A DNA stretch of 64,000 bases, taken from Whalleya microplaca. Lineage: Eukaryota > Ascomycota > Sordariomycetes > Xylariales > Xylariaceae. The notes beneath the pieces were generated by a model. The model ran no database searches, was not told the origin of the DNA, and worked only from the letters and a program-made list of their open reading frames with translations. The stretch spans positions 124,001 to 188,000 of the forward strand of contig MU385716.1 of NCBI GenBank assembly GCA_022497155.1, given 5' to 3'. Below, in pieces: positions 4,555-55,294 of this stretch (position 1 is its first letter; the number at the start of each line of letters is the position of its first letter). The position numbers were made by a program, and so were the translations under genes.

Positions 4555-7500
4555 GGTGAATAGCTTCGCCTTGAGCGGCTCAACACGATGATGCAAATAA
4601 CGAAAGTATAGAATCAAGGAGACTCGAAAAAATCCTACCTGAAAACACTCGATGGGGGCGAGTTATGTGGGCTCTATATATGATCCCATAGAGGATTCAT
4701 TAAGATTAAGCCCTTGACGATGATATGCATGGATCGCCACCAGTACCATATCTACCTACCTGAGTAACAAGATACTAGCGTAATAATTCCCCATGGTATT
4801 GGATCAGACTGGTTCCTACTGCAACCCACTTCACGGTGTAGCATGACTAGGGGTCTGTGGAATGATTCCAAGCGAGTGACAACCAGTAGCGGCGCTGGCC
4901 TCTAGCATTTGTTCTTTTGTCTTCGACGCCGTTGTGGCAGCCGTGGCTGTAAATAGTCTGAACGCTTAGGTTGAAAAGGTGTATAAAAATCGCGGGGAAC
5001 GGGGACAGGCTTGGGGTAGATAACTGACCTGTTACAACTGAAAGGTATCTAGGACGAGGATGTTCATTTTTTTGTCCCTTTTCAAAGCAAATCTGACGAT
5101 GACGTGCCCGAATTAAGAAAGTGACAGCAGCGATGACTAGGGCTTCGGGAAAAGAGATTAAAGCTGGTAGGATATACGTAGTAACAGCATGCACGCATGC
5201 CGAGGACTATTCGTCTGTTCGAATCTGGCGGTTCGCGAGCATCTCGGAGACCAACCGACGGTGGAGTCGATACGAGTTCAGGGGCAGGGGTAAAAATGTG
5301 GAATCCTGACAAGGGTTGTTGGGTCGTCGCCCGTGGCTCCAAGGCCCACCTCACCAGCTCGTCTGCACTCCAAACTGGCCGCCAACACATCGGTATCTAA
5401 AATAGTAGCCCCATGAGCTTGGAATATGGAATGTGAGATGTAAAAATTCAACCGGCTATCATAGAAAAAGGAGGGTGTTTGAACATGATTGCAACTATGC
5501 GTCACCAGTTCACCTCGTTTCGAACATCAACGTTGTTGGGAATTGTTATAGGTTAGAGGTACGTCAGCCGCGAGAAGCCATGCAAGCCACTTAATATATT
5601 CGAAGGTGTTGCTCTGTCAGATGCTCCCAAGGCTGCCGGCAACGAATGAAAATCCTTATTTCCGAACTCGCAGATGAAACAAATATATTTCCATTTGATG
5701 ACGTTGTGTTCTGGCCTCAGTCGATAAACGTCCGACAACCTACCCAATAAGGTAGAATTGAAGAGAATGCTGGTGTTTAGTAGGTCAATATGCTGCTGGA
5801 TTACCAATGTCGAAGAGAGAATGCAGTAATAAACCGAACTTTTTAATGTTGGATCCGGATATTTGGTATCGTGCTAATTTTAGAGATCTGATAAGTCTGG
5901 AGTAGCCTAAAGCTAGATTCGCTAAATTTCGAGAACTATCAGACCTAGGTATCCAGGGTCATATTTGACCATGGTCTAATGTAGGCAAGTGGATAGGGCG
6001 AACCGGCTGGGAGCGGGAAGTAAAAAAAGATTTTGTCTTAGGAGAAAGGGCAAGCCGTACTACGGCTATTCTTCGTGGCGTCGCGAGAAGACGATATAGT
6101 AGGCGTCGACAACTCTGGTCATATGTTGCTACTAGTAGCATACGAGGTTGACTGCATGCTACTCAATTGTCGATCCATTTCCTATCGCGACATAGCCAAT
6201 CGTGATACAAGCTTTGATTTTCAGATGATCTTGTGGATCCTGTGAAAGCGGGATAACCCTATCTGAAGACCTGGGCATGCCCTGGCCCACGGGTACATAT
6301 CTCTCTAGATCTAGACGTGTATTGTGAGTACGAGTACATGCAACCTGAGCTGACATTCTGGCCAACACATGCATCACTTATAAAGCCAAGACGCATAAGC
6401 CCTAGAGTCGGGGCGAAGAGGTACTATATGCGAGCGCTAGACCCAGAGGAAGTAGTGAAATAGACTGCGAGAAAAGAAACCATGGCCTCCTTCGCCCGAG
6501 GTTTGTATATTCGTCCGCGCGCGTAATCGTGACTTGCATACCCAACATTCCCTTTCAAGAATGCAGCCCTGCCGATCAACGGCTGCTTCGCTTTGGCGTC
6601 CATGTGACATAGATTACCTAGACGCGGGATAAAAAAGAAGCCAAGTCTTATTGGCCCCAGAAGCGCTAGCCATGTCTCCTAATTATTATCCGAACCGTCC
6701 TAAGAAACCGCCCCATCATTGGGAAATGCCGTAGCTTTCTTGACCTATGAGAATAGTGTAGATGAATCAGGCTTATGTATGTGCATTACGACGTTGTAGA
6801 CTTCGTCAACACCACCCATCGAACGGCGTCAAAAGGGTAGGGTGTGTATACCCAAGCCTCCTCGACGCCCAAAAGCACCGCCATATCAGTAGCACGTGAT
6901 GGACGGCTGGTGCTCGGCGGTATATGCAATGTATGTAAGATGCACATTTCTGCATGCACATTGACTGAGCCTAGTAGTGATGTGACCTTCGTATTCCGAA
7001 AGGCAGAATGGAAGACTATTGTCTGACTAGCATCGTTGCGGTGAGCACCAATAGTATTTGCTTTTTCTGCACAAACCCGTTATGGCTAGATCTAATAAGG
7101 GGACTTGCTTGGAGTTGGCTGCCCTGATTGTAGAAGTACGTTCTAGGCATACCAAGACGAGTTGAAGTATAGCACTGCCACACTCATATATCGAAGGAAG
7201 GATAGACATCATCGTAGTGCGAGCATCAACATTAGAACACCCATAGTATACGCGCTGCTGGAGGTAGCCAACCCTCCCATGTTTCGGTCTGAGGATTTAT
7301 TAATCTGTACAGCGTCAACCGGCAATAGATCAAAGGCTTCGGTTACGCTGAACTGCTGGACATTCTTGTTTTCTAGGCATAGTTCAAGCTCTGAAGGGTA
7401 GCACAATAGTGGCGTGCAACCAATATACTAGCTAGGGCTGATTCAAAACAAGGCGTGAGTGTACTGGGAACCTCAAGTTCAAGCCTGGCTGGCAACTGAC

Positions 7501-39079: not shown

Positions 39080-40886
39080 CTATTCGCGCTCCCCTGTCTC
39101 CAAGCATTTGCTCTTACCAATTGAGTTCTTTGCGGATGAAAATGGCAGTGCTGTAGGCGTAACGTCGACCTTGGCTCTCCATGTCTTCCACCAGGGCCGA
39201 TTAAATAATTCCTCCATTTTCTCCATCGGCACCCCCTTTGTCTCAGGTGCCCATAGTCCCAAGAGCACCATGCCGATGGCGCAGATCAATGCCCAAAATA
39301 CGTATGCACCCCAGACGTCCAAACTCACAAACATACTGGGAGTAACTCTGACCACCGCAAACTGGAAAAACCAATGTACCGCCATATTTGTCGCATAACA
39401 GACGGATCTGATCCTGGTTGGGTATATCTCAGTCACGTACAGATATTGCACCGTGCAGAGACCGATCGACCAACCAACAGCGTAGACAAAGACAGACGCA
39501 ATGGCCGCATCGGAAGCGGGCTTGTTCGTGCCATCCGAAAAGAGTGCCATATATATTGCCATGTAGATATGGGTGATACATTGTAGACATAAACCAAGCA
39601 TAAAGCACCGGCGGCGTCCGAATATGTCTACTAGTCCCCACGTGAAGGCCATTGTGAATACAAGTTTGACAATGCCATAAGCGCCGCTGGTAATTAGTGA
39701 GTTGTTGTCACCGACGACTCCGGCATATTGGAAAATTTCAGGAATATAGTAGGTAATGCCGTTACCACCAGACCACTGGGCTACTGTTTGCATGGTTACT
39801 ATACAATGTCAGTTACAGTTTGTTGGGCTATGAGGTTTAGAACACGCATACGTCCAAGTAGAAACCTAGAATGATAAGTCTGGATTGTCACAATCTCCTT
39901 GATGATAGTCCAGGTAGAGGCACCTTCCAGAGCCTGTTGTTTGATCGATACCTGATGTCTCAAATCTCTGTACTCCTCTGCAACGGCCGATTCGTCCCTG
40001 TCCGACCTGCGAAGTCGGGCCAGAACGGCCATCGCGTCCTCAGTTTTGTCCTTTGATGCCAGGAATCTCGGCGTATCGGATAGGAAGAACGAGGCTCCCA
40101 GAGCAAGACCAGTTGGAACTAAAACGATAGATATAACAAGTCGGTATTGCTCTTGGATAGGAGGGAGCCCCCTCTGAGCACCGTAACTGATAAAGAATCC
40201 TATGGATAGAAACGATAAGAGAACGACCATACTGTAGAATCCGTCGTCAATAGTTTTTCTTTCTAGACAAACTGCCGAACTATCGGATGTTCTAAGGTAC
40301 AACTCGTGCTTCTTAAACTCTGAAATCGGATGAAAAAAAAAAAAAAAAGATCATTCACTGAAGATACTACTTACTAAGTACTAACGACCATGCCGCGAGA
40401 CTGGGCTGGGGCGACCTCGGAAAGGTAAAGGGGTGCTACAACAGTCAAGCCGCCTGCGCCCAGTCCTCCCCATATACGAGCAAACAGCATGAGGCCAAGT
40501 ATTCCCGAGGAGAATGTCTGCATAAGGTTTCCTGTCATCCACACAGCCATTGATAGCTGCCAGCAACGAAGTCTTCCGAGCTTATCGTTTAGCGGGATTG
40601 CGACGAGGGAGCCAAATGCTGCGCCAAGGACCCCAAAAGATGATATGTTTGCTTTTCTATCAGCAAGACCGGCAGCATCGCCTTTCCAATGGTCTGTAAT
40701 GAGATCAAAGTCATGCTTGAAAGAGGGAAGTCCAGTCGCCGAACTAAACCCTCCTTCGTCGTAGCCTATGTCTTGTTGGTATTACATTAACACGATCTCG
40801 CGTCACGAGGTCACCATACCTTTTGGAATTGATCCACAGGCTATCACCACAATTGTGAATAGGTAGTATAAGTTATATGTGGGCAT
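39080..40886 (-). CDS. MFS transporter, sugar/quinate-permease type
   Basis: Four exons, 40886-40820, 40765-40375, 40231-39852 and 39798-39080, give 518 residues. The intron between exons 2 and 3 is about 143 bases, long for this locus, and contains a 16-base A run; splicing it restores RGMVV-STYMVVLLSFLSIGFF. Sugar-porter signatures are present: the N-terminal GYDEGGFSS, NDKLGRLRCWQ after the second helix, RIWGGLGAGGLTVVAPLYLSE, DIFGRRRCFMLGL and the C-terminal APETKGVPMEKMEELF. Twelve helices are expected. The last motif and the central loop resemble fungal quinate or hexose permeases more than drug exporters. It sits divergent to the amidohydrolase. It could take up a cyclitol or sugar precursor, or move the product; direction cannot be read. 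Confidence 0.88.
40333..40348. repeat. 16-base poly-A run inside an MFS transporter intron
   Basis: On the coding strand this is a 16-base T run in intron 2 of the transporter. It is worth noting because homopolymer miscounts here would not alter the protein. Confidence 0.85.
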
Positions 40887-41814
40887 TTTATCGATATTAT
40901 AGCTGAAACTATTGGCAACGCTGCATAGGTTGCAGTCGATGAACGCTGGCGAAAAGGGCAAGATGACAGGCCATGTGACTGTATTATTGTAGCGAGGAGC
41001 GCTTACTCATATAAATCATATACACGTATTTATAAGATTAATAGTATAGGAACGTCGACTTGGCAAGGCAGTATCAGTGTGGGGGACTCTGCGGGGCAAT
41101 CGGGGAACCCCTGATGTTTAAGAGAGTCGACATATATAACCAAATATAACCGAACTTAGAATACGCTTGTACGGGTCTCCGTAACAGTAGAATACAGCAT
41201 CGAAGACGACTGGATCAGAGTAGTTCGGACAGCTTATCGTAAGGCCTGAAAAGACCATTCTAAATGACGACGGCTTAACAATGTCTCTGGTTGACGGATG
41301 CGCACTGAGTTGTATATCAGAGATCTTTGGCTGACATCAACACTAAGAGTTCCATTACCCCGCTTCGCTGTCGACTTCCTAGTATTCTGCTCTTAAGCTT
41401 CATACGGCATAATCGGTCAAGAAGTATAGCTCACAAGGACCTCCATCCAGGGTATCTATAATATCTCAGAGAGCCGGTACTGGAAATTGGAGCTCAACAC
41501 GCTTCGGTTTGATCTCACCCGAATTGCCAGCCTCGTATTACTCCTTACCTAAGGACGAGCCGGGAACCCGAATACTAACAGGGAACTAACCCACAATCAC
41601 ACGAAGGCGGAATTTAAGCCTTACATATAACTCCGCCAGCAAAAAGAGAATAGCCTCTCTCTCGTAGCTGTTTGCTCAGCTGACAAGAGCTCCTGTAATG
41701 GTTATGCACAGGCTATCTTGTTGCCCTTGTATGCCATTTCTCGAGTCACTATTTCAACTGCATATGTTTCTTTTCGCCACAGAGTAGCCCATTACGCAAC
41801 GCAATCTTTGAACG
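40887..41814. promoter_or_regulatory. Divergent promoter region, MFS transporter / amidohydrolase
   Basis: 928 bp between two head-to-head start codons inside the cluster. No frame is supported, so it should contain both promoters. No recognised operator could be named by eye. Confidence 0.5.
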
Positions 41815-42882
41815 ATGGAAGGGAAGCAGAGAGCACTGACGGTTTCTGAGAGGATGCCGAGAGATGCCTGGGACTCACACATGCACGTTGTCGACCCAAC
41901 AGCATACCCCTTATCAGCTAATGCATTATACAAACCGAACCAGCATACGTTTGAAGATGCCATGAATTTCGAGAACTCTGTTGGTGTCGAGAACATTGTT
42001 ATCGTCCAACCGTCCATATACGGTTATGACAACAGCTGTATGTTGGACGCAATGCGGACCCTTGGCCCGAAGAGGGCTCGTGGTGTTGTTTCGTTTAACC
42101 CGACAGAGACATCCCTATCCACTCTCCAGGACTGGCACCAGTTAGGTGTCCGAGGAGTTAGGATAAATCTACAATCTGTCGGAAAGATAATGGGACAGGC
42201 AGAACTGGAGACTGTGATGAAGCTATATGCAGAAGCAGTACGTCCGTTGGACTGGGTGATCCAAGTCTACCTTCCTATGCACATGATTCCACTCCTTGAG
42301 CGTATCGTGCCTCAATTGGGTTTACGCAGTGAGTAACATATCGAGTTAATTATTCACCCTTATGGCTTATTTCAGGGGTAATAACTCCTAGTTGAAATAT
42401 ATTTGGAAGTCACCTGCAAGCTCTGGGGACTGGATGTGGAACCTCTCATTGTTCGTTGAATTATACGGAAAAAGAGTATACTGACTTCAGACGCTGAAGT
42501 ATGCATTGACCATATCGGTCGACTCGCTTTCCCCGGACAAGAAGCCTATCAACGAAACAAAGACCCGTACAGCCTTCCGGAGTTTCAGTCTTTGGTAAGA
42601 CTACTAAAAGGAGGACAGACTTTTGTGAAGCTGTCCGCACCTTATAGAATCAGCAAGTCTCAAGATGATTGGGAAGAGCTTCGACCAATCGCCCAAGAAA
42701 TCTTGAAGGTAGCTGGTGAAAGTAGGGTGGTGTTCGCGACAGATTGGCCTCATACGAGGTTCGAAGGCCTGGATATAAGGCCTTGGATTGAATTGCTGCT
42801 TGAATTGTGTGAAAAAAAGGAATATTTGAAGGAGAGATTATTCAGAGGAAATGCTCAAGATTTATGGGGAGTGCAAATATAA
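41815..42882 (+). CDS. Amidohydrolase family 2 (TIM-barrel metal hydrolase)
   Basis: Two exons, 41815-42328 and 42491-42882, give 301 residues with a 162-base intron (GTGAGT...TTCAG). The metal-binding HxH of the amidohydrolase superfamily is His22 and His24 (WDSHMHVVDP). Other matches are GVENIVIVQPSIYGYDNS, GVRGVRINL, the CIDHIGR strand end, and the Asp-bearing FATDWPHTRF near the C-terminus. This pattern fits the group containing 2-pyrone-4,6-dicarboxylate lactonase and similar decarboxylases or lactonases. The length is typical. It is divergent from the transporter and lies two genes from the OMT/cyclase pair, so it may belong to the pathway. It is not part of the known core MAA machinery; amide or lactone hydrolysis, or decarboxylation of an intermediate, are the chemical options. 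The unusually long intron leaves a small chance of a missed exon. Confidence 0.82.
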
Positions 42883-43917
42883 ATGTTATAATTCGATGAT
42901 GATGATCACGATGTCAAGAGCCCTAGGGATTTCGTGGTGATTGCTGAGTGTTAGGGCAAGTAAGGGTTCCCACAAGAGAACGAGGTCTTCAATATCTACT
43001 TTACTCAATGTGCAATTATTTGCACCTGACCAGCCTCCAGGCAGCTGCCTTATCTTTTGAAAAGTCAAGTCTATGTTTCACAAAACTGCCGCATCAATTT
43101 TATCTTAACAGACGTGATAAACACGAATATATGATGGTTTGATTTGGTGCCCATAAAGCTCTCTCATGTTGGGGTTATTGTAACATTTCTTGATGGAAGA
43201 AGCCAATTGTACCGGTAAGTGATGACATCGCAGTTCCATAGTTCCAGCTGGAGGACTTTAACTACAGGAGAAGGGCGATTTGATGTATACAACAAAAGAA
43301 AAGGATACGATGCAATCTTCCTTCGACGTACACGCCAATATCGCGACGCATATTTCGTAGCGAACATGTGTTGCTAGGGTAGTGTAAGCATGTGTCTCCG
43401 CTTTTCAGGGGTCGAAACCATGGTATGTGCAGTAGCACAAGCAACCATAGAGTATTTGTTGACGGACTGCTTAATGTGTCAAGGTTATAAACTATAAAGG
43501 ATGGGGATACGGCTTCGACACACTCGGTTCATACGTCATTCAGAATAGCTACAACAGGTTTTGGAATGGAGACTGTTCATTATGATTCATCATGCACCAA
43601 ATGTCTACAGGGCTTATGCTGTTTGTGCGCAATTCTTCAAAAGATTGTATTACGTAGACAACGTGAAGTCTACGAAAATTGAGGCAGGAGAAATAAGATT
43701 AGGCTTTCATGTTGATATTGTTATTGTTAAATCCCCATACCTGATTATTGAATATTGTAATTATTGATCATGCACGGGAGGCACATCTGTACAGTCGAAC
43801 CTTTGATTATTCGAAGTGTTCACGATATCCAAAGACTTGGCCAAAGCGTGTTATCCTAATACTCGATATCATTCGAATTTATTTATAAGAACGTAGCAGC
43901 CCAGTAGTTATTTCTAA
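42883..43917. other. Convergent intergenic region inside the cluster
   Basis: About 1 kb, AT-rich, between the 3' ends of the amidohydrolase and methyltransferase genes. No supported frame. Confidence 0.55.
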
Positions 43918-44985
43918 CTAAACCTGTAATTCGTTTAATGGAGTGTGTGATTGCACCCCAATGCACCTCGTAATCTCAATTGCATCCTAATCGATATTAA
44001 CTTCGGCTTGACCTACACTGGGCGCACAGTATACTTACGGGAACACCACTAGGTTCCCAGCCCTTGACGAAGTGACTTTCATATATCAGATCGGGATTTC
44101 CTTTGGGGCCAGACTGCTCTGCTCTGGAGAAATTTCGCTTCTTTTGTTCGACCGTACTTCTGACGTATTCAAGATACGGTGGGTTTCCAGGCTTGATGAC
44201 TGTAACGCTTTCAGTGACTACACTCCGAAAATTTGCCTAGTAACTGAACTTACCATTGTCAGCAGCATATACTGAACCTGGTGTTACTATACCAAGATCC
44301 TCGCATAATTTCAAGTCGGGTGTGTAAGCTGGTTTATAATGGTCCAGGAAGAGAAGGTCGATATGTTTCAATTCCTTCGCAGAAAGTCGTCTCAATGAAT
44401 CGGAACTGGTACCAATGATGACTTTAACGATGTCGCTTAGCCCAGCAAGGTCAACAACCATAGCGATTACAGCCCCAAATTCTGGGTTCTTCTCCAAGCT
44501 GTAGTATCGACTCCCGCCAGAATCTTTCAATGCTGCGCCAAAGGCTACAGCTGAGTATCCAACATATCCACCGAGTTCAACCATGGTTTGTGGTTTCTCT
44601 TTGATGATCAGATCTATAACTGTCCTTGCCTTATACTTACCGATATTCACTACCAAAGACAAAGGTCAGCATTTTACCAATGAATTTGTCACATTTGTTG
44701 GTAGAAAGACATCGATGCTAGACCTACTCAGGTATTTTTTCGTTCTCCCATACTCGTCTATAGCATCCAAAACGCGATGGGGTTTTCCGCGCATCTGTTC
44801 AAGATCGGCGTGATTGTAAATGAAATGAAGGAGATCGATTTCTCTTCCATCGTTGAACTACATGGGAAGTACTCTATAAACTCTCATATCTCTGAGAACG
44901 ATACGCGGTTGGATATACTGACATAAATATCCTCTTGAGGTTTATAGGCCTCCCCTTGAAACCCATCGTTTCGAGTCCCATTCAT
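43918..44985 (-). CDS. SAM-dependent O-methyltransferase, catechol-OMT type (predicted 4-deoxygadusol-forming)
   Basis: Five exons, 44985-44923, 44857-44728, 44649-44254, 44199-44039 and 43986-43918, give 272 residues in frame. The SAM-binding motif is VELGGYVGYS (88-97). The three metal ligands of catechol OMTs are all present: Asp167 (FLDHYKPAY), Asp195 and Asn196 (AADN); His168 and Lys170 sit where the catalytic loop is expected. The C-terminus contains GVPDAIEITRC, typical of the family. In MAA pathways an OMT methylates desmethyl-4-deoxygadusol to 4-deoxygadusol. The cyanobacterial MysB need not be close in sequence; here the role is inferred from the divergent pairing with a DDGS-type cyclase across a 967-bp promoter region. 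Exons are short, so a simple ORF search sees only the middle third. Confidence 0.9.
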
Positions 44986-45952
44986 CTTGATAAATAGGTT
45001 GATGAAATTGTGCTAAGGCGTGACACTATTGTATAAAGTAATGAAGACCGTGCTGATTCTATGCTGCACCTGAGAATGTGCTGTGGTACTGTTTCTACGC
45101 GTCAGCCCTAAGTCTTGAAGTCATTGACTTTCCTGTTGGCCGCACAACCAGATGATGTCCAGACATACGTTGCTTACCATTACTAAGCAAATATGTCTCG
45201 ACCCACGCCGTTGTGGGTGTGGGATCTTAAATCCAGATCGCTGAAGTTTGAACGAGATTTCGAGACATTTGACATAAAATTCTTATGGTAACCATGTGAA
45301 CCTCACCCAGTTTTATAATCTATGATTCTTCTACGCACTACAAACTAGAATTAGGTTCAGCGCCTGCACATGTGGAAAAATGAGGGGTTTGCTCTATCAA
45401 TGATGAAACTAGACAACCATGGGTATAATTCTGGATTCTGCCATCACCCTAGAAGCTGTCATCGAAGAAGGGATTCTTAGGGGCCTGCGAGATCTATTGG
45501 CAGCGACTAGCGTGAGATTTCGCCGCATGCAGATCAGGGACCCATGAAGCTAGATTGTTTGAGTAAAAGGCATATGGCTAACACGTAGAGATATCGATGA
45601 TATACGGGGCGCGGAGGCAAGTAAGTCCATTGGTAGCTAGGTTTGAAATGGACATTCTGGGAATATCCAAAGTATCCTGTGATCATTAACCTGAGAGTAA
45701 TGACGAATTGAATCTCAGCCATGTCGCAAAAGCGACGTACAATACCAGTAATGATGCCAAATATACTCTGTGACAAAGTATGATAGCGCCTAGTAGTATG
45801 GAGACTTAACGAAGGTACTTGAACCTCGGTGCTCCTTGTCTTGGGGTGATAAAACTGCAGGCTCTGAGTTTCAACAATCTCTTGCCTTTACTGAAGCAAC
45901 TGAAAAGCGGGTATTCATATATTTGGTCTGCTTTGATACTACTGACCCCAAG
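44986..45952. promoter_or_regulatory. Divergent promoter region, O-methyltransferase / DDGS-type cyclase
   Basis: 967 bp between the two head-to-head starts. The cyclase reading frame stays open for about 117 bases or more upstream of its ATG, but that part does not look like the family and is probably 5' UTR. A natural place for light- or development-responsive elements; none could be named by eye. Confidence 0.5.
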
Positions 45953-47594
45953 ATGTCTGACCTCAAAGCAAATGTACAGGAAACTAAGCATGGCTTCCAC
46001 GTCGAGGGTTATGAGAAGATTGAGTACGATTTCACTTTTGTTGACGGTATTTTCGACATTACCAACTCGAATCTGGCAGATTGTTACAAAAAATGGGGCC
46101 GAGTACTTGCCGTTACAGACAAGAATGTCTTTGGGCTGTATGGGCATAAGATGGAGAAGTACTTCGATCACTACAACCTTCAGCTCAAGGTTCACCAGTG
46201 TTCGATTGGAGAAAAGGCCAAAACTGTCGACACTTTCCTTAATATTGCTGATTCAATGACCGAATTCGGAATTATCAGAAAGGTAGGATTTCTGATTCGA
46301 CCCGAGAACAAGTATTCACGTTCATCACAGGAACCCGTCCTTGTTGTTGGAGGAGGACTTGTTACCGACGTCGCTGGGTAAGATCGCCACACAATTTGAT
46401 TACAATTATCACAAGCTGACTTTATTTTTAAGATTCGCATGTGCTGCCTACCGTAGAAACACTAATTTTATTCGAGTCCCAACTACCGTAATTGGCCTTA
46501 TCGACGCGAGTGTCAGCATCAAGGTAGCAGTCAACTATGGGAGATACAAGAATCGTCTCGGCGCTTACCACGCCCCAGTACACACGTTCCTTGATTTCAC
46601 GTTCCTTCGAACTCTACCAATTGCGCAAATCCGTAATGGCTTTGCAGAATTAATTAAGATCTCATCCTGCTCCCACTTACAGGTCTTCGATCTGCTTGAC
46701 AAATTTTGTGAGCAGCTGATCGCGAGCAAATTCGGCCGAGCCGACGGGTCAAGCAATGAAGTCCGCAAGGCTGCAGATTTCGTAAGATCTCTCCGCGTTG
46801 TGTATCATTGTCTCTATGAGAATTAATGGTTTAAACCAGATTAATCGCGAGGGCATTTACGAAATGCTCAAGCTAGAGACGCCAAACCTGCATGAGATTG
46901 GCCTTGAACGAGTCATCGCATATGGGCATACGTGAGTACTCTGACTTCACAGGGAATTACTATATTATTGCTAATCAAATAAAGATGGTCTCCATTGCAT
47001 GAGCTGATTCCCGAGACACCTTTGCGACACGGACACGCTATTTCGATTGACATGGCTTACTCTGCCACCTTGGCAAACCAACGGGGTTTACTTTCAGACA
47101 AGGAACACCACAGGCTTTTCAACCTCTTCGCGAGAGCTGGACTCTCGATCGACCACCCACAATTTGATGATGATGTGTTGGATAAAGGTACAGCAGCTAT
47201 CCTAAAGACGAGAGATGGCTTGCTTCGATTGGCGGTTCCGAATCCACTAGGATCTTGCACATTTATTAATGATGTTTCTCTAAGGGACCTGAAGTATACC
47301 CTGAAAAAGCATAAGGAAATCTGCAAGACATTCCCACGGGAAGGTGCTGGTATCGAGTCCTACGTTGATAGCAGTGACACTGGGTATGAGGATATCGACG
47401 CTGAAAATCTTGGCGTCGAGCAAGTTGCCAAAGAAGCTGGCATTCTGCCCGAAAGTAAGAGTGTGAGCAGTGGTATCACCGGCGCAGGTAAGGAGGTCAA
47501 CGGTAGTAACAGTCGTGCGTCCAGTGATCTTCTTGGGAAAGTCAAGGCTGCAATTAATGGGTTTCACCCCAATGGCATAAAGGCACAGGCTTGA
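45953..47594 (+). CDS. Sugar-phosphate cyclase, desmethyl-4-deoxygadusol synthase (DDGS) type
   Basis: Five exons, 45953-46282, 46331-46377, 46433-46781, 46840-46931 and 46985-47594, give 475 residues. The start is the ATG before [20 protein letters not shown], where relatives begin. It belongs to the dehydroquinate-synthase superfamily: NAD loop [12 protein letters not shown] (115-126), [21 protein letters not shown] with Lys156 and Asn160, and predicted zinc ligands Glu198 (NGFAELIK), His272 (YGHTWSP) and His288 ([10 protein letters not shown]). Family knowledge: such cyclases convert sedoheptulose 7-phosphate to desmethyl-4-deoxygadusol (DDGS) or to 2-epi-5-epi-valiolone (EEVS); the OMT and ATP-grasp neighbours argue for DDGS. 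The last about 85 residues form a polar, Ser/Gly-rich tail beyond the catalytic fold. Equivalent to MysA in role. Confidence 0.93.
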
Positions 47595-48602
47595 ATCTCG
47601 ATATTGGTGGCTAGTCTTCTACATATGGGACCTCTACATTAGTTAGTTTTGTTAACATACGCCCTATAGGGCTGAGTGGAGGTACGGGCCTATGTATGGC
47701 CGGCCGCCTATACATGTATATAAGGTGGCTACGCCAACTTCCTATAGCTTCGCCTTGCACTACTAATCAAGTCACTATACTCCTCATTACTTTGTCCCAT
47801 ACTGACAATTTTCAATGCTTGTAGTTACTCACTGGTACTATCTCTAGACAGAGTTGCTCATGCCTACTTGCTTCCAATAGGTTAACAGGGTGTCGAGATC
47901 ATGTGTCCAAAACTTTGGTCAATAGGTAATATTTCCGTCATACATACCAAGAAAATAATTCGCACAGCTCTTACCTTGCTCAATAATATCTGTGGACAAT
48001 TAGCTCTTTAATGCCGAAACGAAGGGCTAAATCTTCTTGAGGCTGACATGGTGTATATTATTTACGCACGTGGGAATTTCAACACTCAAACGAGTTTCAG
48101 TGTTCGGTATTAGGATAGAAAGGGCCGCAATACCAGTCACCGGTTCCTACCATCATATGCCTCGGCAAACTACCAATTGAGCACATTCGTCAGTCCAAGA
48201 CATGATGACATCATACATATCTATAATAAGGTTGCATGTAGGTATAAGTTAGACGACGAATTTAATATGGGCAACTGGTTAAAAAGCGCAGACAAAGTGC
48301 CCCATCAAAATGATTCGTAATATACAAGCTATTGTAGTTAGCTATGCTAGTGATGGTAATCTTTTATTAGACTGCTGAGAACATAAGTCTCGAGTAATGG
48401 CATGAAGTGTCACATATTTTCTGGAACAAATGTCGTCCTATGTTGTCGCCATATACCTATTCGTCTTGTCCGATTGATTCGCTATTAAGAAGCGTAAGAC
48501 AGATACAATGTTGCTCAGATGTTAGTCGCTTCCTCGTTGATGGACAAGTTGTCGCCACACCCTCCACCACCAATGTGAAGCATACAAATAGGAGTATAAG
48601 CT
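47595..48602. other. Intergenic region between cyclase and ATP-grasp genes
   Basis: About 1 kb, AT-rich, no supported frame. It contains GGCCGGCCG and TATACATGTATATA near 47699-47721 and the promoter of the ATP-grasp gene. Confidence 0.55.
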
Positions 48603-50147
48603 ATGTTAGGACAGCCAGAAGCATTTGCTATCCGATGCTTCGGTTTGGTTTTCCTCAGTCTGCTACTTTTGCCCTATTCATCCTTGGCGGCGTTCCTCAT
48701 CTTTTCAACTCATCAAATAACTTCGTATTGTAAGGCAAATGAGAAACGCCCCGATAGTCCACGACATGCATTCAGACAACGGACTGTACTTGTCACTGGG
48801 ATTGGAATGGCAAAGGGGCTTTCTTTAGCCCGGTCATTCTATTTATCGGGTCATCGAGTCATCGGTGCAGATTTCGAGACTTTCGGTATCCCATGCTCAG
48901 GTCGATACTCAAAAAGCCTCACAGCCTTCTATCGACTATCAAACCCCAACACGATGGAAGGAAATGAAACGTACACTTCTCGGCTAGTCGAAATTATTAA
49001 GACGGAGGGTGTGGCGCTCTGGGTGCCGTGCTCTGGGGTTGCTAGCGCTGTAGAAGATGCGCAGGCAAAGGAGTTCATAGAACAGCACACGCGCTGCAAA
49101 TGTATTCAGTTCGACATCTCTACAACCTCAGTTCTTCATGAGAAGGACGCATTTATGCGCGAGACCAAGAGTCGAGCTTTACCAGTCCCCGACACTCATG
49201 ACGTCAAGAGCAAGGATGACGTTATTCGCATTCTTTCAGATCATGCAGATTCTACACTACAACATAGATTTATCCTGAAACCCATCGGCGTGGATGACAT
49301 TAATAGGGGTAATATGACACTTTTACCACTATCGACATCGTTGAAGACGAAGGAGTACGTTTCGCGCCTGCCTATCTCTGCTTCGAATCCCTGGATTCTT
49401 CAACAGTTCATTCCAGGAGGTGAAGAGTACTGCACGCATGCCCTCATCGTCCGTGGCGAGATCAAGTGCTTTGTGGCTTGCCCAAGTGCCGAATTATTGA
49501 TGCACTACACGCCATTACCTCGAAATTCTACGCTATGGCAAGCAATGTATGCCTTCACCATCGATTTCGTGAAGCGCTCATCAAACCCGGAATTTATGAC
49601 AGGCCACCTGAGTTTTGACTTCATGGTGTGCGATGGAGCTGTTCATGAAGGCAGATTTGAGAGAAACATATTCGTTATTGAATGCAACCCTCGGACCCAT
49701 ACGGCAGTGGTACTCTTTGGACAGCAAAGCCCAGAGATGGGCGAAATGGTGCAAGCTTACCTTTCAGCTATTGGTGCAGACGAGGAGACAGCATCTTCTG
49801 CATCCAACACATCTGAATTGCCTAATGGCATCGGCCAGCCTTTAGTCATCCCTTCACTCGACGTACGACCTCGATACTGGATAGGGCATGACATAGTCTC
49901 TCTATTTGTGCAGCCTACACTATACCGGAGTATTGGATTGATCGATTCTAGTCATTTATTAACAGATTTTAGTGCATTTGTACTTCACCTCCTTACATGG
50001 AAAGAAGGCACTTTTGAGGCTTGGGACCCGGTACCAGCATTTGTTTTATACCATGTATATTGGCCGATGGCTATTATAACTGCTTGGTGGCATGGGCGTC
50101 GTTGGAGCAGGGTCAATGTTAGCACCACGAAAATGTTTGAGTGTTGA
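48603..50147 (+). CDS. Membrane-anchored ATP-grasp ligase (predicted 4-deoxygadusol:amino acid ligase)
   Basis: Intronless 514-residue protein from the ATG at 48603. A hydrophobic segment at about 11-40 (FGLVFLSLLLLPYSSLAAFLIF) predicts one N-terminal membrane span or anchor. The catalytic part starts with a Rossmann-like TVLVTGIGMAKGLSLARSFY (about 60-80). The ATP-grasp core follows: HEKDAFMRE, FILKPIGVDDINRG for the ATP lysine, WILQQFIPGGEEYC, and the metal-binding FVIECNPRTHTAVVLF near residue 360. This matches carbamoyl-phosphate-synthetase-like ATP-grasp proteins such as MysC, which activates 4-deoxygadusol with ATP and couples it to glycine. The amino acid used here is unknown. A second hydrophobic stretch sits near the C-terminus (FVLYHVYWPMAIITAWW). 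It lies between the cyclase and the NRPS-like gene, all transcribed the same way. Confidence 0.88.
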   Translation: MLGQPEAFAIRCFGLVFLSLLLLPYSSLAAFLIFSTHQITSYCKANEKRPDSPRHAFRQRTVLVTGIGMAKGLSLARSFYLSGHRVIGADFETFGIPCSGRYSKSLTAFYRLSNPNTMEGNETYTSRLVEIIKTEGVALWVPCSGVASAVEDAQAKEFIEQHTRCKCIQFDISTTSVLHEKDAFMRETKSRALPVPDTHDVKSKDDVIRILSDHADSTLQHRFILKPIGVDDINRGNMTLLPLSTSLKTKEYVSRLPISASNPWILQQFIPGGEEYCTHALIVRGEIKCFVACPSAELLMHYTPLPRNSTLWQAMYAFTIDFVKRSSNPEFMTGHLSFDFMVCDGAVHEGRFERNIFVIECNPRTHTAVVLFGQQSPEMGEMVQAYLSAIGADEETASSASNTSELPNGIGQPLVIPSLDVRPRYWIGHDIVSLFVQPTLYRSIGLIDSSHLLTDFSAFVLHLLTWKEGTFEAWDPVPAFVLYHVYWPMAIITAWWHGRRWSRVNVSTTKMFEC

Positions 50148-50444
50148 AGCAGCAGTATCTCAGCGAAGATTACGGAACCTGTTACGCCTTCTATTGAAGA
50201 ATGATGCAGGAGATGTAGAAACAGTAGCCCAGGTATCAATGTTGATAATTTCATGTTTCTGCACAGTAAGTCTACATAACCGCAAGACCCCGGGCCTCGT
50301 TACACTCCTTTCGAGTTAAATGTTACGCATGGCGTATTCAGTAAGCTTTGTTTCCTAGGTGCACTGGTAATAGAAAGCTTTAACGGAAGCTTTTTGCTCA
50401 CAATAATCAGATGTCACGATAATAGGGGTATTAGTTATAGTGCC

Positions 50445-50495
50445 TTAAGCCTATGGATCTCGGAGCAATAATTGCTCCGAGATCCATAGGCTTAA
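50445..50495. repeat. Perfect 25-bp inverted repeat with a one-base centre
   Basis: Left arm 50445-50469 begins TTAAGCCTATGGATCTCGGA; right arm 50471-50495 is its exact reverse complement, around a single A at 50470. Transcribed from either strand it would form a near-loopless hairpin; as DNA it could extrude a cruciform. Such length without mismatch is not expected by chance. It could be a recent inverted duplication, a MITE-like remnant or a functional 3' end structure. Confidence 0.95.
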
Positions 50496-50498
50496 AAG

Positions 50499-50524
50499 AG
50501 ATCTTCTAAGCAACTAGAAGATCT
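50499..50524. repeat. 10-bp inverted repeat with 6-base loop, followed by T run
   Basis: Arms AGATCTTCTA (50499-50508) and TAGAAGATCT (50515-50524) with loop AGCAAC and a short TTTT after the right arm. It starts three bases after the larger palindrome, so the two make a tandem hairpin block. Confidence 0.9.
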
Positions 50525-50900
50525 TTTAGATTTTAGACCTTTACACAATTTTACTAGAGTGATCACGGCAGCACCTAAATGATCATTGCACACACTGTAA
50601 CTGTGATATCAGATTTATAACGAAGTTGGTGAAAGATGCATACTGTGAAGAGGCTCAATATGAATATGGCCAAATATCCTGAAGGTTTCAAATTTAATCA
50701 TTAAATAATTACGTACCCGTCGTGTTCGTGGAACCGACCTGTCCGTATACATCAATACCTTATAGCTGCTCGGTCGATGACCTCATGAATCCGTATATTG
50801 CAGAACAGAACCCAAACAAAAAGGTAACTAATGAATCTAGAGATTTCGTTCAGTTTCGAAAATCCAGTCTTTTCATTGACCTACTCACTACTCACTACTC

Positions 50901-53900
50901 ATGAATCCTGTCAAACAAAACTATTTCACGTGCACCTTAGGGCAGGCCGCACTATTCAAGAAACAGGCACAACAATCAATGAGGTCCTTTGAAACAGTCC
51001 TTGCTCTAATAGAAGACCAAGCCAGCAGTTACCCCGAGTATCATGCTATCGGGTTCGCTAATTTCAAATTGGATGCTTCATCTCAGCGACGTGAGTGACA
51101 ACCCATCCCTAGTCCTAGCCCGTACTAAGTACCATGTAGCCCCCGAACATGTCTCCTTTTTAGAACTCAGGGATCTGTCGAGACTTGCGGCCAGTATTCT
51201 AGATGACCTTTTGAGAAACCAGCGTAGTAGAGAAGACTCCCCAACTATTGGGTTGCTCTTTACTAGCAGCCTAGACTTTATTTTGACATGGCTTGGTCTT
51301 CTGCGTTTAAGGTGTAAAGCATTTCTCCTGGCGTAAGAATCCCTTAGAAATCTTGGCTGCTATTTGTGTATTTACTATACACACAAGCTGACATGTTAGT
51401 CCTCAACTGGAACCTCAAGCAATAGAGCACCTCTGCACTGTGTCAGGGGTGAGGACGATTTTGATCGATGACGGTCAGGGACAGAAAGTTACGCAGCTCC
51501 GTGACAATATCAACATCGTCAAGATCCCAACCTATCAGCGTGACCGTCACACAAACCCCCACGATTACAGTGAAATGTCACTCAGTAGAGAGGCACTTGA
51601 CATAGCCTACCTTCGGCATACCTCAGGTACATCATCCGGGCTACCGAAACCTATCATACAGAGTCAATGGGGAGCGGTGGGCTGTTTGCCATCATTTACG
51701 GATACAGATCAGCCCGGTACCTTCTCGACGACGCCGTTATACCATGGTGGTCTCGCTGACTGCCTCAGAGCTTGGACTAGCGGTGCCATGATATGGTTCT
51801 TTCCAGAGGGCGTTGTGCCGATCACGGGGGCCAATGTTCGGGCCTCGGTGCATTATGCTCGCGAGGTCAGCTCTAGTCCTGTGAAGTATTTCTCGTCCGT
51901 GCCATATGTGCTCCAGATGCTGGCAGAAGACGACGACGGTGTTCACCTTCTCCAGGAAATGGATCTGGTCGGTGTTGGTGGTGCCGCGCTGCCTCCATCT
52001 GTCGGCAACAAGCTAGTTGATTTAAATGTCAATCTCGTCTCACGAATGGGAAGCGCCGAATGCGGATTCGTCATGTCGTCACATCGTGACTATGCTGAGG
52101 ATAAAGAGTGGCAATATCTCAGACCTATCGATGACCCCACATTCTTATCATTCGAGCATAGGGAAGACGGACTATCAGAACTTGTAGTGAAGTCGCAATG
52201 GCCACTTATATCCAAGGTGAACCGTGGTGATGGTTCATACGCTACAGCGGACTTATTCGAAGTTCATCCGTCGATCCCAAACGCCTGGCGATACCACAGT
52301 CGTGCAGACGCGCAGATCACTCTGGCTAATGGCAAAAAGTTTGATCCTTCACCACTCGAAGACTCCATTAGAGCTTCAACTAGCTTATTGAAAGATGTGC
52401 TCATTTTTGGTGCGGGTAAAGACTACGTCGGTGCTCTCCTATTTAAAACTTCGCAGGACTTGTCCGATGAAGGGGCTCTCGAGGCTATTTGGCCACTAGT
52501 ACAAAAGTTGAATTCTGAGACGCAAAGTCATGCCCGGTTGACAAGGTCAATGTTGGTCGTAATTCAAGTAAGAGAAGGAGAAGAGCCACTCCCAAAGAGT
52601 AGTAAGGGGACCATCATGCGTCGTCAGGCTGAAGAAACCTATGCAGATATTATATCTCGCGCCTATTCTGGCAAAGCGACAATTTCTGAAGGCCCATTCG
52701 ATATCACAAACGATAATCCTCACTCTATACTCCTTAATATTTTCTCTCAAGTCCTAGGTTGTCAGGTAGACCCCCAGCGAGATCTGTTTCATCAAGGTGT
52801 CGATTCAATCGCATGCATGCAGATTAAAAAGCTGATCGAGGCGCATTTCATGCCCAAGGGATCACCTCGGTTGCCTATTAACGTCATTTATGACAATGGA
52901 ACCATCGATGCTTTGGCAATAAGCTTGACACAGATATGTCGTGGTAATGATCAACAGAACACACAGAATGATCACGACGAGCTGGATTTGATGCGAGCAC
53001 TCTCTGAGAAGTACAGCCAGTTCAAACCTTTCAAGGCCAATTCGACACACAGAGACGGCATTGTTATTACTCTCACAGGTGCAACTGGCACCTTGGGAGC
53101 ACATATCCTATCTCAATTATGTAGCGACAATAGAGTGTGCAAGGTATACTGTTTGCTGCGTGCCCAAGACAAGTTTGCGGCACACCAACGTATATCCAAG
53201 GCGTTATTAAAGCGATGCCTATCGGGAATCGAGCATTTGAAGGAATCTCATGGTTGCCAGAAAATTTCCTGTCTCCCGTGCAATCTATCTGAACCCAAGC
53301 TAGGCCTTTCGGATGATGATTGGGCACATATCGTGACTGAGTCTACGATCCTCATTCATTCGGCTTGGACGGTCAACTTCAGCCTGCGGCTAGGTTCATT
53401 CGAAAATCACATTGCCGGAACCCGGAACATGATCAATGCAGCCATGTCAGGCGATGCGCAACTCTTCTTCATTAGTTCAACTGCTGCAGTGAGTTCTGAT
53501 CCATCTGCTATTATTCCAGAGAGGATCTCCTCAGATCCATCCCATGCCTCTTCACTTGGATATTCGAGGTCCAAATGGGCCGCCGAACACGTATGCGCAG
53601 CCGCATTTCAAGAATCACTCAAGAGCCCGCCGACTGGCGTTTCTAAGGGTCCAAATCTCTCAATCATACGTGTTGGACAGCTGTGTGGAAACGAGATCGG
53701 CATCTGGAATACAAGCGAGGCATATCCGCTGATGCTGTCGTCTGCCAGTTTGACTGGTTGTTTGCCGGATTTACCAAATGAACCCCTCAATTGGTTGCCT
53801 GTAGATCTAGCTGCCAAAGCGGTCTTGGAGATTGCACTCTCGGACCAATTCATACCGACTATGGCAAGCTCAAGAGACAACTCGCTGCCAGATATTCCCG

Positions 53901-54304
53901 TATACCATGTGCTGAATCCCCACAAGACACCATCATGGTGCGAAATGCTTGATATGATCACCGAGGGATCTGATGGCTCCTTGTTTGAAAAAGCGTCGCC
54001 AGCTGAATGGCTAGAGCGGCTCGAGTCAGCTACCAGTACGTTACCGGGAGGACACCCATCTCAGGCATTACTGGGACTGTGGAAACGCAGATATGCCCAA
54101 TGGGAACCTCGCCAAGGTATAATGGCTGCTTCTCCCACGTTCGGTATCACTTCGTCGTCGCGAGCGTCACAGACGGTAAGAGACGTCAAGCCGTTGAACC
54201 GCGACAGAATAATGAACATGTGGAACTGGATACAAGAGAACATGGGAACCAAAAAGCCTGGACACCTATCAGATGTAGTAAACACTCACCCCCCCCAGAT
54301 GTAA
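50901..54304 (+). CDS. NRPS-like A-T-R protein (adenylation, carrier, terminal reductase); predicted mycosporine carboxyl reductase
   Basis: Three exons, 50901-51090, 51164-51332 and 51400-54304, give 1087 residues. The adenylation domain (about 1-530) shows A3 LRHTSGTSSGLPKPI at 191-205, YHGGLADCLRAW, RMGSAECGF and the A10 lysine Lys522 (PKSSKGT). The carrier domain has its phosphopantetheine serine at Ser589 (FHQGVDSI). The C-terminal part is a thioester reductase: NAD(P) loop GATGTLG at 680-686, Ser812/813 and the catalytic pair Tyr841-Lys845 (GYSRSKW). No condensation or thioesterase domain. A-T-R is the build of carboxylic acid reductases and Lys2, which reduce a tethered acyl group to aldehyde, sometimes to alcohol. 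In cyanobacteria the NRPS-like MysE is A-T-TE and adds serine. The inferred role here is reducing the carboxylate of a mycosporine-amino acid, or of a loaded amino acid, to give an amino-alcohol mycosporine. Confidence 0.93.
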
Positions 54305-54388
54305 TAAATAGATAAATTAACACGAGTGAATTCTTACTTCTATGAAGATTCTTCCTACTCTTTAACATGTGTTGTCAGAGCAGTACTA

Positions 54389-55294
54389 TCACAGCTTCGT
54401 TGTTGGCGGGTCCCAGTGAACACCTTCTCCAAATTCCACGTTGGCATCTTCTAATTTGATAGCTAAATGCCACCGTCCTAGCCCAGGCCAAAAGTTTTCC
54501 TGTCTCGCACTAGTTATCAGGTTTCCTTCCTCATCTCTCTGAGTCAAATCGGCCCATCCCAGCAGGGCTCGTCTTGTGGACTGTAATGGAGCGATCTTGC
54601 ACCAGCGGTCAGTCCCTGGAAGTTCATTCTGACTTCCATGGCCTTCTGGAAGTGGTGGCTGTACTAATGAAGAATCGATCCCAATGTATTTCAACCAAGA
54701 TAATGAAAGTGGGAAAGCCGGCGCCCAACGCAGCGGTCGAAATGCGGTCTGGAGAAATGGCTTCTCGCTTGGCTGCATTTCGAACGGGTCACTTGTTGCA
54801 TCGTGCGGGTAGACCTTAACCTGTGTTGAACCGTCAAGGGCATTATTCCATTCGAACCTTGCGAGGTGTTTGGGGATACTCCAATCTAGACTCAAGGCAT
54901 CAGCCATCTTGCACTATGGCGTGGAATTGGTTAGCCACCGACTTTTTCGCCCATTCCAGCATGTCTGTTTCTGTGACACATATATCCTAGTGATTCGGGC
55001 GTTTTTCTCCGTCTCTCTTCTACCATTCTCTTCTACTTCATAAGCGAAGAATCCGGGGCATATGATAAGCTCATCGTATGGACCGACAGGGCTCTCAGAG
55101 TATCGAATGATTTGGATTTGGCTCAGACCACCCAGATGTCGTCCAGAATCAGAGTGAGCATTCAACGACGATCCCTCTAAAGGCGAGTAGGCATAATCTG
55201 GGAGGTTTCCGGCTTCACTCCAAAAGCTCACCATGTATACCGCACCCCTGAGCTTCCATGGAGGTGGAGCTGGCACAATAGGGTCACCTTCCAT
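54389..55294 (-). CDS. Acetoacetate-decarboxylase-like fungal protein
   Basis: Two exons, 55294-54943 and 54885-54389, give 282 residues. The 57-base intron has a GTCGGT donor and CTAG acceptor, and splicing yields CWNGRKNWSIPKHLARFEW, a conserved block that confirms the junction. Other matches to the fungal acetoacetate-decarboxylase-like group are WKLRGAVYMVSFW, LGGLSQIQIIRYSESPVGPYDELI and KNARITRIYVSQKQTC. The fold is a beta-barrel; true decarboxylases use a Schiff-base lysine, which I could not place here with confidence, so activity may differ. It converges on the NRPS-like gene with only 84 bases between stops and ends the cluster on the right. Relatives often sit in fungal secondary-metabolite loci, but the chemistry here is unknown. 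No signal peptide is visible. Confidence 0.8.

What the first reader, a model, noticed from the sequence alone, without database searches (positions are those of the whole stretch)
39080..55294. Compact fungal mycosporine-type cluster with a complete DDGS-OMT-ATP-grasp core and an A-T-R enzyme
Sequence shows seven adjacent intact genes, four of which match the known logic for 4-deoxygadusol-based sunscreens. Known: cyanobacteria use MysA, MysB, MysC and then MysD or the NRPS-like MysE. Here the last step is an A-T-R protein and three further genes are added (transporter, amidohydrolase, decarboxylase-like). As a set this looks like a route to a fungal mycosporine that is not simply the cyanobacterial one.
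Basis: partly seen in the sequence, partly recalled or inferred. Interest (0 to 1): 0.92.

Follow-up and report, generated by a model that had tools for sequence, protein, structure and literature searches.

The report
Fungal sunscreen genes with a reductase
A fungus carries a compact set of genes for a natural UV sunscreen together with a reductase-type enzyme that may explain why fungal sunscreens often end in an alcohol; the same pairing is seen in a number of related fungi.

Summary
The seven genes are there and each reads through once GT-AG introns are removed. Proteins 100% identical to three of them are named Whalleya microplaca. Transporter and amidohydrolase were not tested.

Most likely mechanism (step 4 inferred): the first three enzymes make an oxo-mycosporine acid and the A-T-R reduces its carboxyl to the amino alcohol typical of fungal mycosporines. 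Against it: Phaffia reportedly makes mycosporine-glutaminol without such an enzyme, and similar Fusarium A-T-R proteins have no listed DDGS on their contigs. NRPS-like 'mycosporine' clusters were noted in Hypoxylaceae in 2021. A new variant of a known pathway.

The parts
43918..44985 (-). OMT: catechol-type O-methyltransferase, 5 exons (44923-44985, 44728-44857, 44254-44649, 44039-44199, 43918-43986), 272 aa
   Evidence: gene model; PF13578 2.2e-12 and PF01596 1.9e-8; best solved relative 5zy5 'Probable catechol O-methyltransferase 1' E 5.3e-42
45953..47594 (+). DDGS: desmethyl-4-deoxygadusol synthase, 5 exons (45953-46282, 46331-46377, 46433-46781, 46840-46931, 46985-47594), 475 aa
   Evidence: 100% identical to P0121; 5tpr 493 bits against 4p53 (ValA) 233 bits; 57% identity to the cyclase of cyanobacterial locus L003
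48603..50147 (+). ATPG: ATP-grasp ligase (MysC-like), single exon, 514 aa, hydrophobic N-terminus
   Evidence: 27.5% identity, E 2.5e-43, to an ORF that starts 1.15 kb beyond the cyclase match in L003; AF2 model (pLDDT 61) matches ATP-grasp enzymes at E 1.3e-11 to 2.0e-9, TM-scores to the query only 0.34-0.44; single copy in the genome
50901..54304 (+). ATR: adenylation-thiolation-reductase protein, 3 exons (50901-51090, 51140-51332, 51400-54304), 1095 aa
   Evidence: AMP-binding, AMP-binding_C_3, PP-binding, NAD_binding_4 (on the 1069-aa version); motif positions; N-terminal F[T/V]CTLG motif present in 80 of 120 listed relatives
39080..40886 (-). MFS sugar-type transporter, 4 exons, 520 aa; membership in the cluster not tested
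   Evidence: Sugar_tr PF00083 6.5e-82
41815..42882 (+). Amidohydro_2 protein resembling 2-pyrone-4,6-dicarboxylate hydrolase, 2 exons, 301 aa; membership not tested
   Evidence: PF04909 6e-34; 2ffi E 8.6e-20; no second copy found in the genome
54389..55294 (-). ADC-like protein, 2 exons, 282 aa; neighbour, probably not part of the cluster
   Evidence: 100% identical to P0241; on a DDGS contig in the query species only; no second copy found in the genome

Best explanation
This is a fungal oxo-mycosporine cluster whose functional unit is OMT-DDGS-ATPG-ATR. DDGS turns sedoheptulose 7-phosphate into desmethyl-4-deoxygadusol; OMT methylates it to 4-deoxygadusol; the ATP-grasp ligase joins an amino acid to it through its amino group, giving a mycosporine that absorbs near 310 nm and still has a free carboxyl (steps assigned by homology). 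The A-T-R protein then adenylates that carboxyl, holds it as a thioester on its carrier domain and releases it by NAD(P)H reduction as aldehyde or, after a second reduction, as the amino alcohol, i.e. a mycosporine-serinol, -glutaminol or -glutamicol (this step is inferred; the amino acid is not known).
For: Core identities: DDGS against EEVS; COMT-type OMT; ATP-grasp ligase homologous to one beside a cyanobacterial cyclase and with an ATP-grasp fold. The divergent OMT/DDGS pair with an ATP-grasp gene beside it resembles the Phaffia cluster, which is proven by deletion and expression (PMC10057719: abstract, sections 2.1 and 2.3 and passages read). A-T-R goes with the core: 38 of 120 listed A-T-R hits share a contig length with one of 120 listed DDGS hits, all Xylariomycetidae by name (Xylariales and Amphisphaeriales; five names checked), contigs down to 36.9 kb; locus tags are 3 apart in Apiospora marii, 4 apart in Pestalotiopsis fici and adjacent in Xylaria curta; four public gene models run ATPG and A-T-R together, which shows that the two genes are neighbours there. 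Domain order A-T-R without thioesterase, with the carrier serine, adenylation lysine and reductase YxxxK motifs in place (motif meanings recalled), fits reductive release. The A4 motif reads PLYHGGLAD where amino-acid-activating domains have an Asp that holds the free amino group (recalled rule), as expected if the amino group is already bound to the ring, though any acid without a free alpha-amino group would fit as well. Fungal mycosporines are described as oxo-type and include glutaminol forms; a glutamicol glucoside appears in a reference title (PMC3083659, passages; PMC10057719).
Against: Phaffia DDGS+OMT+ATPG alone gave a peak called mycosporine-glutaminol in S. cerevisiae (PMC10057719, section 2.3), so an A-T-R is not needed there; that section reports retention time and co-injection, no mass data. 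A Hypocreales-dominated group of 66 relatives (it also holds Parathielavia, Plectosphaerella and unnamed rows) agrees with the 38 DDGS-linked ones at 155 positions conserved to 97% or more in both, yet none of them shares a contig with a listed DDGS and I saw no name that I know as Hypocreales among the 120 listed of 3230 DDGS hits. Three long Fusarium models carry zinc-cluster and/or FAD-oxidoreductase domains (P0071, P0093, P0118), and two more extensions look alike by eye, so the neighbours differ there. The enzyme's substrate may therefore not be a mycosporine. Sequence distances of A-T-R follow ADC (r 0.77) at least as well as DDGS (r 0.71) in 13 species, so co-inheritance is not specific.
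Confidence: 0.5

Rival explanations
1. The A-T-R reduces the free amino acid (Ser, Gln, Glu) to its amino alcohol first, and the ATP-grasp ligase then attaches the amino alcohol to 4-deoxygadusol, as proposed for Phaffia.
For: The Phaffia paper states that the ligase incorporates glutaminol. Linkage of A-T-R to the core fits equally.
Against: The A4 motif lacks the Asp that would hold a free alpha-amino group (motif seen; rule recalled).
Confidence: 0.2
2. The A-T-R keeps an ancestral function shared with Fusarium NRPS11 (reduction of some unrelated acid) and lies beside the mycosporine core for another reason, such as a joint product in which a second acid is reduced and then attached.
For: 155 positions conserved to 97% or more in both 38 linked and 66 unlinked relatives, only 8 diagnostic positions; the unlinked group is a neighbour in the tree (midpoint root); different neighbours in some Fusarium models; product of NRPS11 listed as not known in 2013 (PMC3694855, passage).
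Against: 38 pairings across several families of Xylariomycetidae argue for a shared pathway. The title of a 1987 study on mycosporine glutaminol in Trichothecium roseum (reference list seen), a Hypocreales species, suggests that some Hypocreales do make mycosporines.
Confidence: 0.2
3. The A-T-R acts like MysE and couples a second amino acid to the ring, giving an imino-mycosporine (320-360 nm).
For: Same place in the cluster logic as the cyanobacterial NRPS-like enzyme (PMC3252866, passage).
Against: No thioesterase domain, a reductase instead (that MysE ends in a thioesterase is recalled); fungal mycosporines are described as oxo-type (PMC3083659, PMC10057719).
Confidence: 0.06
4. [quoted passage not shown]
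For: Some homologues carry that name.
Against: 5tpr 493 bits against ValA 233 bits; GHTWSP...HGHAV as in 5tpr, not GHSFSP...HGEAV as in ValA; the Phaffia paper uses a matching stretch to call DDGS. That 5tpr is the Anabaena variabilis DDGS is recalled; the entry is named 3-dehydroquinate synthase. The published 14-residue fingerprint (PMC4426668, passages) was not tested, since its source paper is not held.
Confidence: 0.03

Closest known systems
Phaffia rhodozyma MYC cluster (DDGS-OMT-ATPG), PMC10057719
   Same: Same three core enzymes; DDGS and OMT side by side in opposite directions; ATP-grasp gene next to the pair
   Different: No A-T-R gene named in the Phaffia cluster; there ATPG is beside OMT, here beside DDGS; Phaffia ATPG has six exons, this one a single exon; product in the present fungus unknown
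Cyanobacterial mysA-mysB-mysC with mysD or mysE
   Same: Cyclase 57% and ATP-grasp 27.5% identical to ORFs of one cyanobacterial locus; same order of chemistry
   Different: OMT has no significant BLAST match at that locus, where an ORF that looks by eye like a methyltransferase lies between the two; no MysD domain; A-T-R in place of MysE
NRPS-like 'mycosporine-like' clusters noted in Hypoxylaceae, PMC8403587 (passages)
   Same: Probably the same cluster type: A-T-R hits from Hypoxylon, Daldinia, Annulohypoxylon and Jackrogersella share contigs with DDGS
   Different: That paper gives no mechanism for the NRPS-like enzyme in the passages I read; it reports two network clades of four clusters each and cites an actinobacterial study
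Fusarium NRPS11 (ChNPS12 subfamily; PMC6480918 passage)
   Same: A-T-R architecture, about 50% identity, near-identical adenylation motifs
   Different: No listed DDGS on those contigs; zinc-cluster and FAD-oxidoreductase domains in some fused models; product listed as not known in 2013

Membership tests
Fungal oxo-mycosporine cluster | Cyclase is DDGS rather than DHQS, EEVS or DOIS | tested here: met
   5tpr 493.1 bits, ValA 233.1, other chains named DHQS at most 120.7, DOIS 89.3; the only other match to the DHQS family in the genome is on C44. By sequence only; that 5tpr is a DDGS is recalled
Fungal oxo-mycosporine cluster | SAM-dependent O-methyltransferase beside the cyclase | tested here: met
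   COMT family
Fungal oxo-mycosporine cluster | ATP-grasp ligase | tested here: met
   no Pfam hit, no significant sequence match in the PDB, model confidence only moderate
Fungal oxo-mycosporine cluster | Product absorbing near 310 nm | not testable with these tools
   Needs LC-MS/UV
Cyanobacterial shinorine-type MAA cluster | MysD (D-Ala-D-Ala-ligase-like) or MysE (A-T-TE) | tested here: not met
   No such domains among the seven proteins; the NRPS-like protein ends in NAD_binding_4, no thioesterase. Definition of MysD/MysE partly recalled
A-T-R adenylate-forming reductase | AMP-binding, carrier and NAD_binding_4 domains with catalytic residues | tested here: met
A-T-R adenylate-forming reductase | Reduces a carboxylic acid | not testable with these tools
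   Enzyme assay needed
Fusarium NRPS11 / ChNPS12 subfamily | Groups with NRPS11 against other subfamilies in a tree | tested here: inconclusive
   The tree holds only the 120 best hits (among them the Fusarium poae nrps11 hit) and no other subfamily; subfamily label from PMC6480918
Cluster membership of the ADC-like gene | Travels with DDGS in other species | tested here: not met
Cluster membership of transporter and amidohydrolase | Travel with DDGS in other species | not tested

The most novel reading that the evidence does not exclude
Xylariomycetidae, and perhaps Hypocreales through NRPS11, use a dedicated A-T-R carboxylate reductase that works on a finished mycosporine and turns its amino-acid carboxyl into the amino alcohol that marks fungal mycosporines. 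That would be the missing reductive step of fungal mycosporine biosynthesis and would give a function to a widespread orphan reductase family.
Probability: 0.4. Interest if true: 0.68.

Novelty: new variant of a known kind. Interest (0 to 1): 0.52.

Why it matters
In my paper searches (open-licence papers only, listed rows only) I saw no enzyme assigned to the step that gives fungal mycosporines their amino-alcohol side chains. A reductase that recurs beside the core genes makes the question directly testable, would give chemists a way to choose acid or alcohol sunscreens, and would point to a function for the NRPS11-type reductases of Fusarium.

Tried and rejected
EEVS reading of the cyclase: rejected on sequence. 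True ATPG-A-T-R fusion protein: the public Whalleya model P0001 and three others join the two, but all four lack the F[T/V]CTLG N-terminus that 80 of 120 listed relatives keep, and in the window ATPG ends with its own stop at 50147 and A-T-R has its own start at 50901; I take the fusions for gene-calling artefacts (no transcript data). ADC-like gene as cluster member: rejected. Co-evolution by distance correlation: not specific. First scan of bacterial genomes with one DDGS sequence found nothing; the second, with an alignment, found one cyanobacterial locus. The AF2 model of a relative of the A-T-R (P0002; pLDDT 69, pTM 0.47) was too weak in the adenylation region to read a pocket, and the profile search of solved structures aligned mainly the reductase part, so the claim about the A4 motif rests on the motif alone. 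NCBIfam gave only matches below its cut-offs.

Paper searches (all 10 used). In the rows listed (one search shows 25 of 78) I saw no paper assigning a reductase to fungal mycosporines; most subscription papers are not held. Papers seen: PMC10057719 abstract, sections 2.1 and 2.3 and passages; PMC8403587, PMC4426668, PMC5404775, PMC6480918, PMC3694855, PMC3252866, PMC3083659 passages only; the rest as listings.
Full report
Where it is. The window is part of contig C7 of a 48.1-Mb genome in 114 contigs. Proteins identical to the cyclase, the A-T-R part and the ADC-like gene are named Whalleya microplaca, all with a longest contig of 1,271,413 bp; NCBI places the species in Xylariales. The cluster lies in a more AT-rich stretch (45.1% GC for 36001-60000 against 50.5% to the left and 51.1% to the right), between ordinary genes: a K+ transporter and a DnaJ-domain protein to the left, a MYND-finger protein to the right.

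The genes. All seven read through when GT-AG introns are removed. The A-T-R start was moved upstream to 50901, because the resulting N-terminus (NYFTCTLG) recurs in relatives. Pfam supports every assignment except the ATP-grasp gene (no hit) and the ADC-like gene (below cut-off). The ATP-grasp gene was placed by its match (27.5% identity, E 2.5e-43) to an ORF next to a cyanobacterial DDGS-like gene (57% identical) in a Leptolyngbyaceae contig and by a structure search in which the 50 hits listed are ATP-grasp enzymes such as biotin carboxylase, GAR synthetase and L-amino acid ligases, with modest TM-scores (model pLDDT 61). A sequence search of the PDB with it found nothing significant.

The cyclase. 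It scores 493 bits against 5tpr (annotated 3-dehydroquinate synthase; I recall it as the Anabaena variabilis DDGS) and 233 against 4p53, which PMC4426668 names as ValA, the EEVS. Around the metal site it reads GHTWSP...HGHAV like 5tpr, not GHSFSP...HGEAV like ValA. The stretch used to call DDGS in Phaffia has a close counterpart here ([27 protein letters not shown]).

Which genes belong together. The protein database gives no gene order, but it gives the length of the longest contig for each hit. Using the 120 listed hits of each search (of 847 A-T-R, 3230 DDGS and 532 ADC hits), A-T-R and DDGS share 38 contig lengths, ADC and DDGS one, ADC and A-T-R one, and that one is the query species. The 38 are all Xylariomycetidae by name, most of them Xylariales, with Apiospora, Pestalotiopsis and Truncatella in Amphisphaeriales; 47 A-T-R hits are named Fusarium and none is among them. 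At least two named species with both proteins listed had different lengths (Xylariaceae FL1272; Apiospora arundinis, whose entries stand for several sequences). Locus tags agree: Apiospora marii 009726/009729, Pestalotiopsis fici 12759/12763 (its ADC is 01073), Xylaria curta g784/g783. Lists are cut at 120, so absence is weak evidence. The transporter and the amidohydrolase (2-pyrone-4,6-dicarboxylate hydrolase-like) were not tested.

The A-T-R. In a tree of the 120 hits, DDGS-linked proteins fill most of one clade (31 of 42 rows, Xylaria and Hypoxylon relatives) and parts of two groups with Apiospora and with Pestalotiopsis/Truncatella (7 of 10), and a Hypocreales-dominated group of 66 has none (FastTree, midpoint root, several long branches, so the order of groups is unsure). 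The label needs 12 changes on the tree against a shuffled mean of 32.6. Between the 38 linked and those 66 proteins 155 positions are conserved to 97% or more in both and 8 are diagnostic. So the adenylation domain probably has the same kind of substrate in both groups. The genome has 16 stretches matching PF23562, some of them exons of one gene, so A-T-R-type enzymes are a family here; the match in this window is the only one on C7.

Mechanism. Steps 1-3 (cyclase, methyltransferase, ligase) follow from homology to a pathway proven in Phaffia by deletion and expression. Step 4, reduction of the carboxyl of the mycosporine by the A-T-R, is my inference from domain order, motifs, linkage and the alcohol side chains of known fungal mycosporines. 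Two results stand against it: the yeast result with Phaffia genes (identified by retention and co-injection in the section I read) and the unlinked Fusarium relatives. The title of a 1987 study of mycosporine glutaminol in Trichothecium roseum (seen in a reference list), a Hypocreales species, leaves room for a mycosporine role in Hypocreales.

Prior work. A 2021 survey says that homologues of an NRPS-like mycosporine cluster occur in most Hypoxylaceae genomes (PMC8403587, passages). The cluster type is thus noticed but, in what I could search, not explained. I rate it a new variant of a known kind.

Noticed in passing
window 50445-50495: A perfect palindrome (25+1+25 nt) between ATPG and A-T-R. 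Its 20-nt core is found 191 times in the genome at up to 2 mismatches (92 forward, 99 reverse, reversed control 0), often as back-to-back inverted pairs: a dispersed foldback or MITE-like element.
   Followed up: partly
window 36001-60000: An AT-richer block (45.1% GC) around the cluster, flanked by about 50.5% and 51.1% GC.
   Followed up: partly
public protein P0001 (Whalleya microplaca, 1376 aa): The deposited gene model fuses a truncated ATP-grasp protein to the A-T-R; similar fusions in Daldinia bambusicola, Xylaria curta and Hypoxylon FL1284 look like gene-calling errors.
   Followed up: yes
A-T-R relatives in Fusarium (P0071, P0093, P0118; also P0056, P0081): Public models fuse the NRPS11-type A-T-R to zinc-cluster (PF00172) and/or FAD-oxidoreductase (PF07992) domains (P0071, P0093, P0118); the extensions of P0056 and P0081 look alike by eye. 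A hint at the neighbours of this orphan cluster.
   Followed up: partly
A-T-R against DDGS in the 38 linked pairs: A-T-R sequences lie more than twice as far apart as the DDGS sequences of the same genomes (mean distance 0.48 against 0.21).
   Followed up: no
window 1876-4662 (-): Glyoxal/galactose-oxidase-like protein with WSC domains.
   Followed up: no
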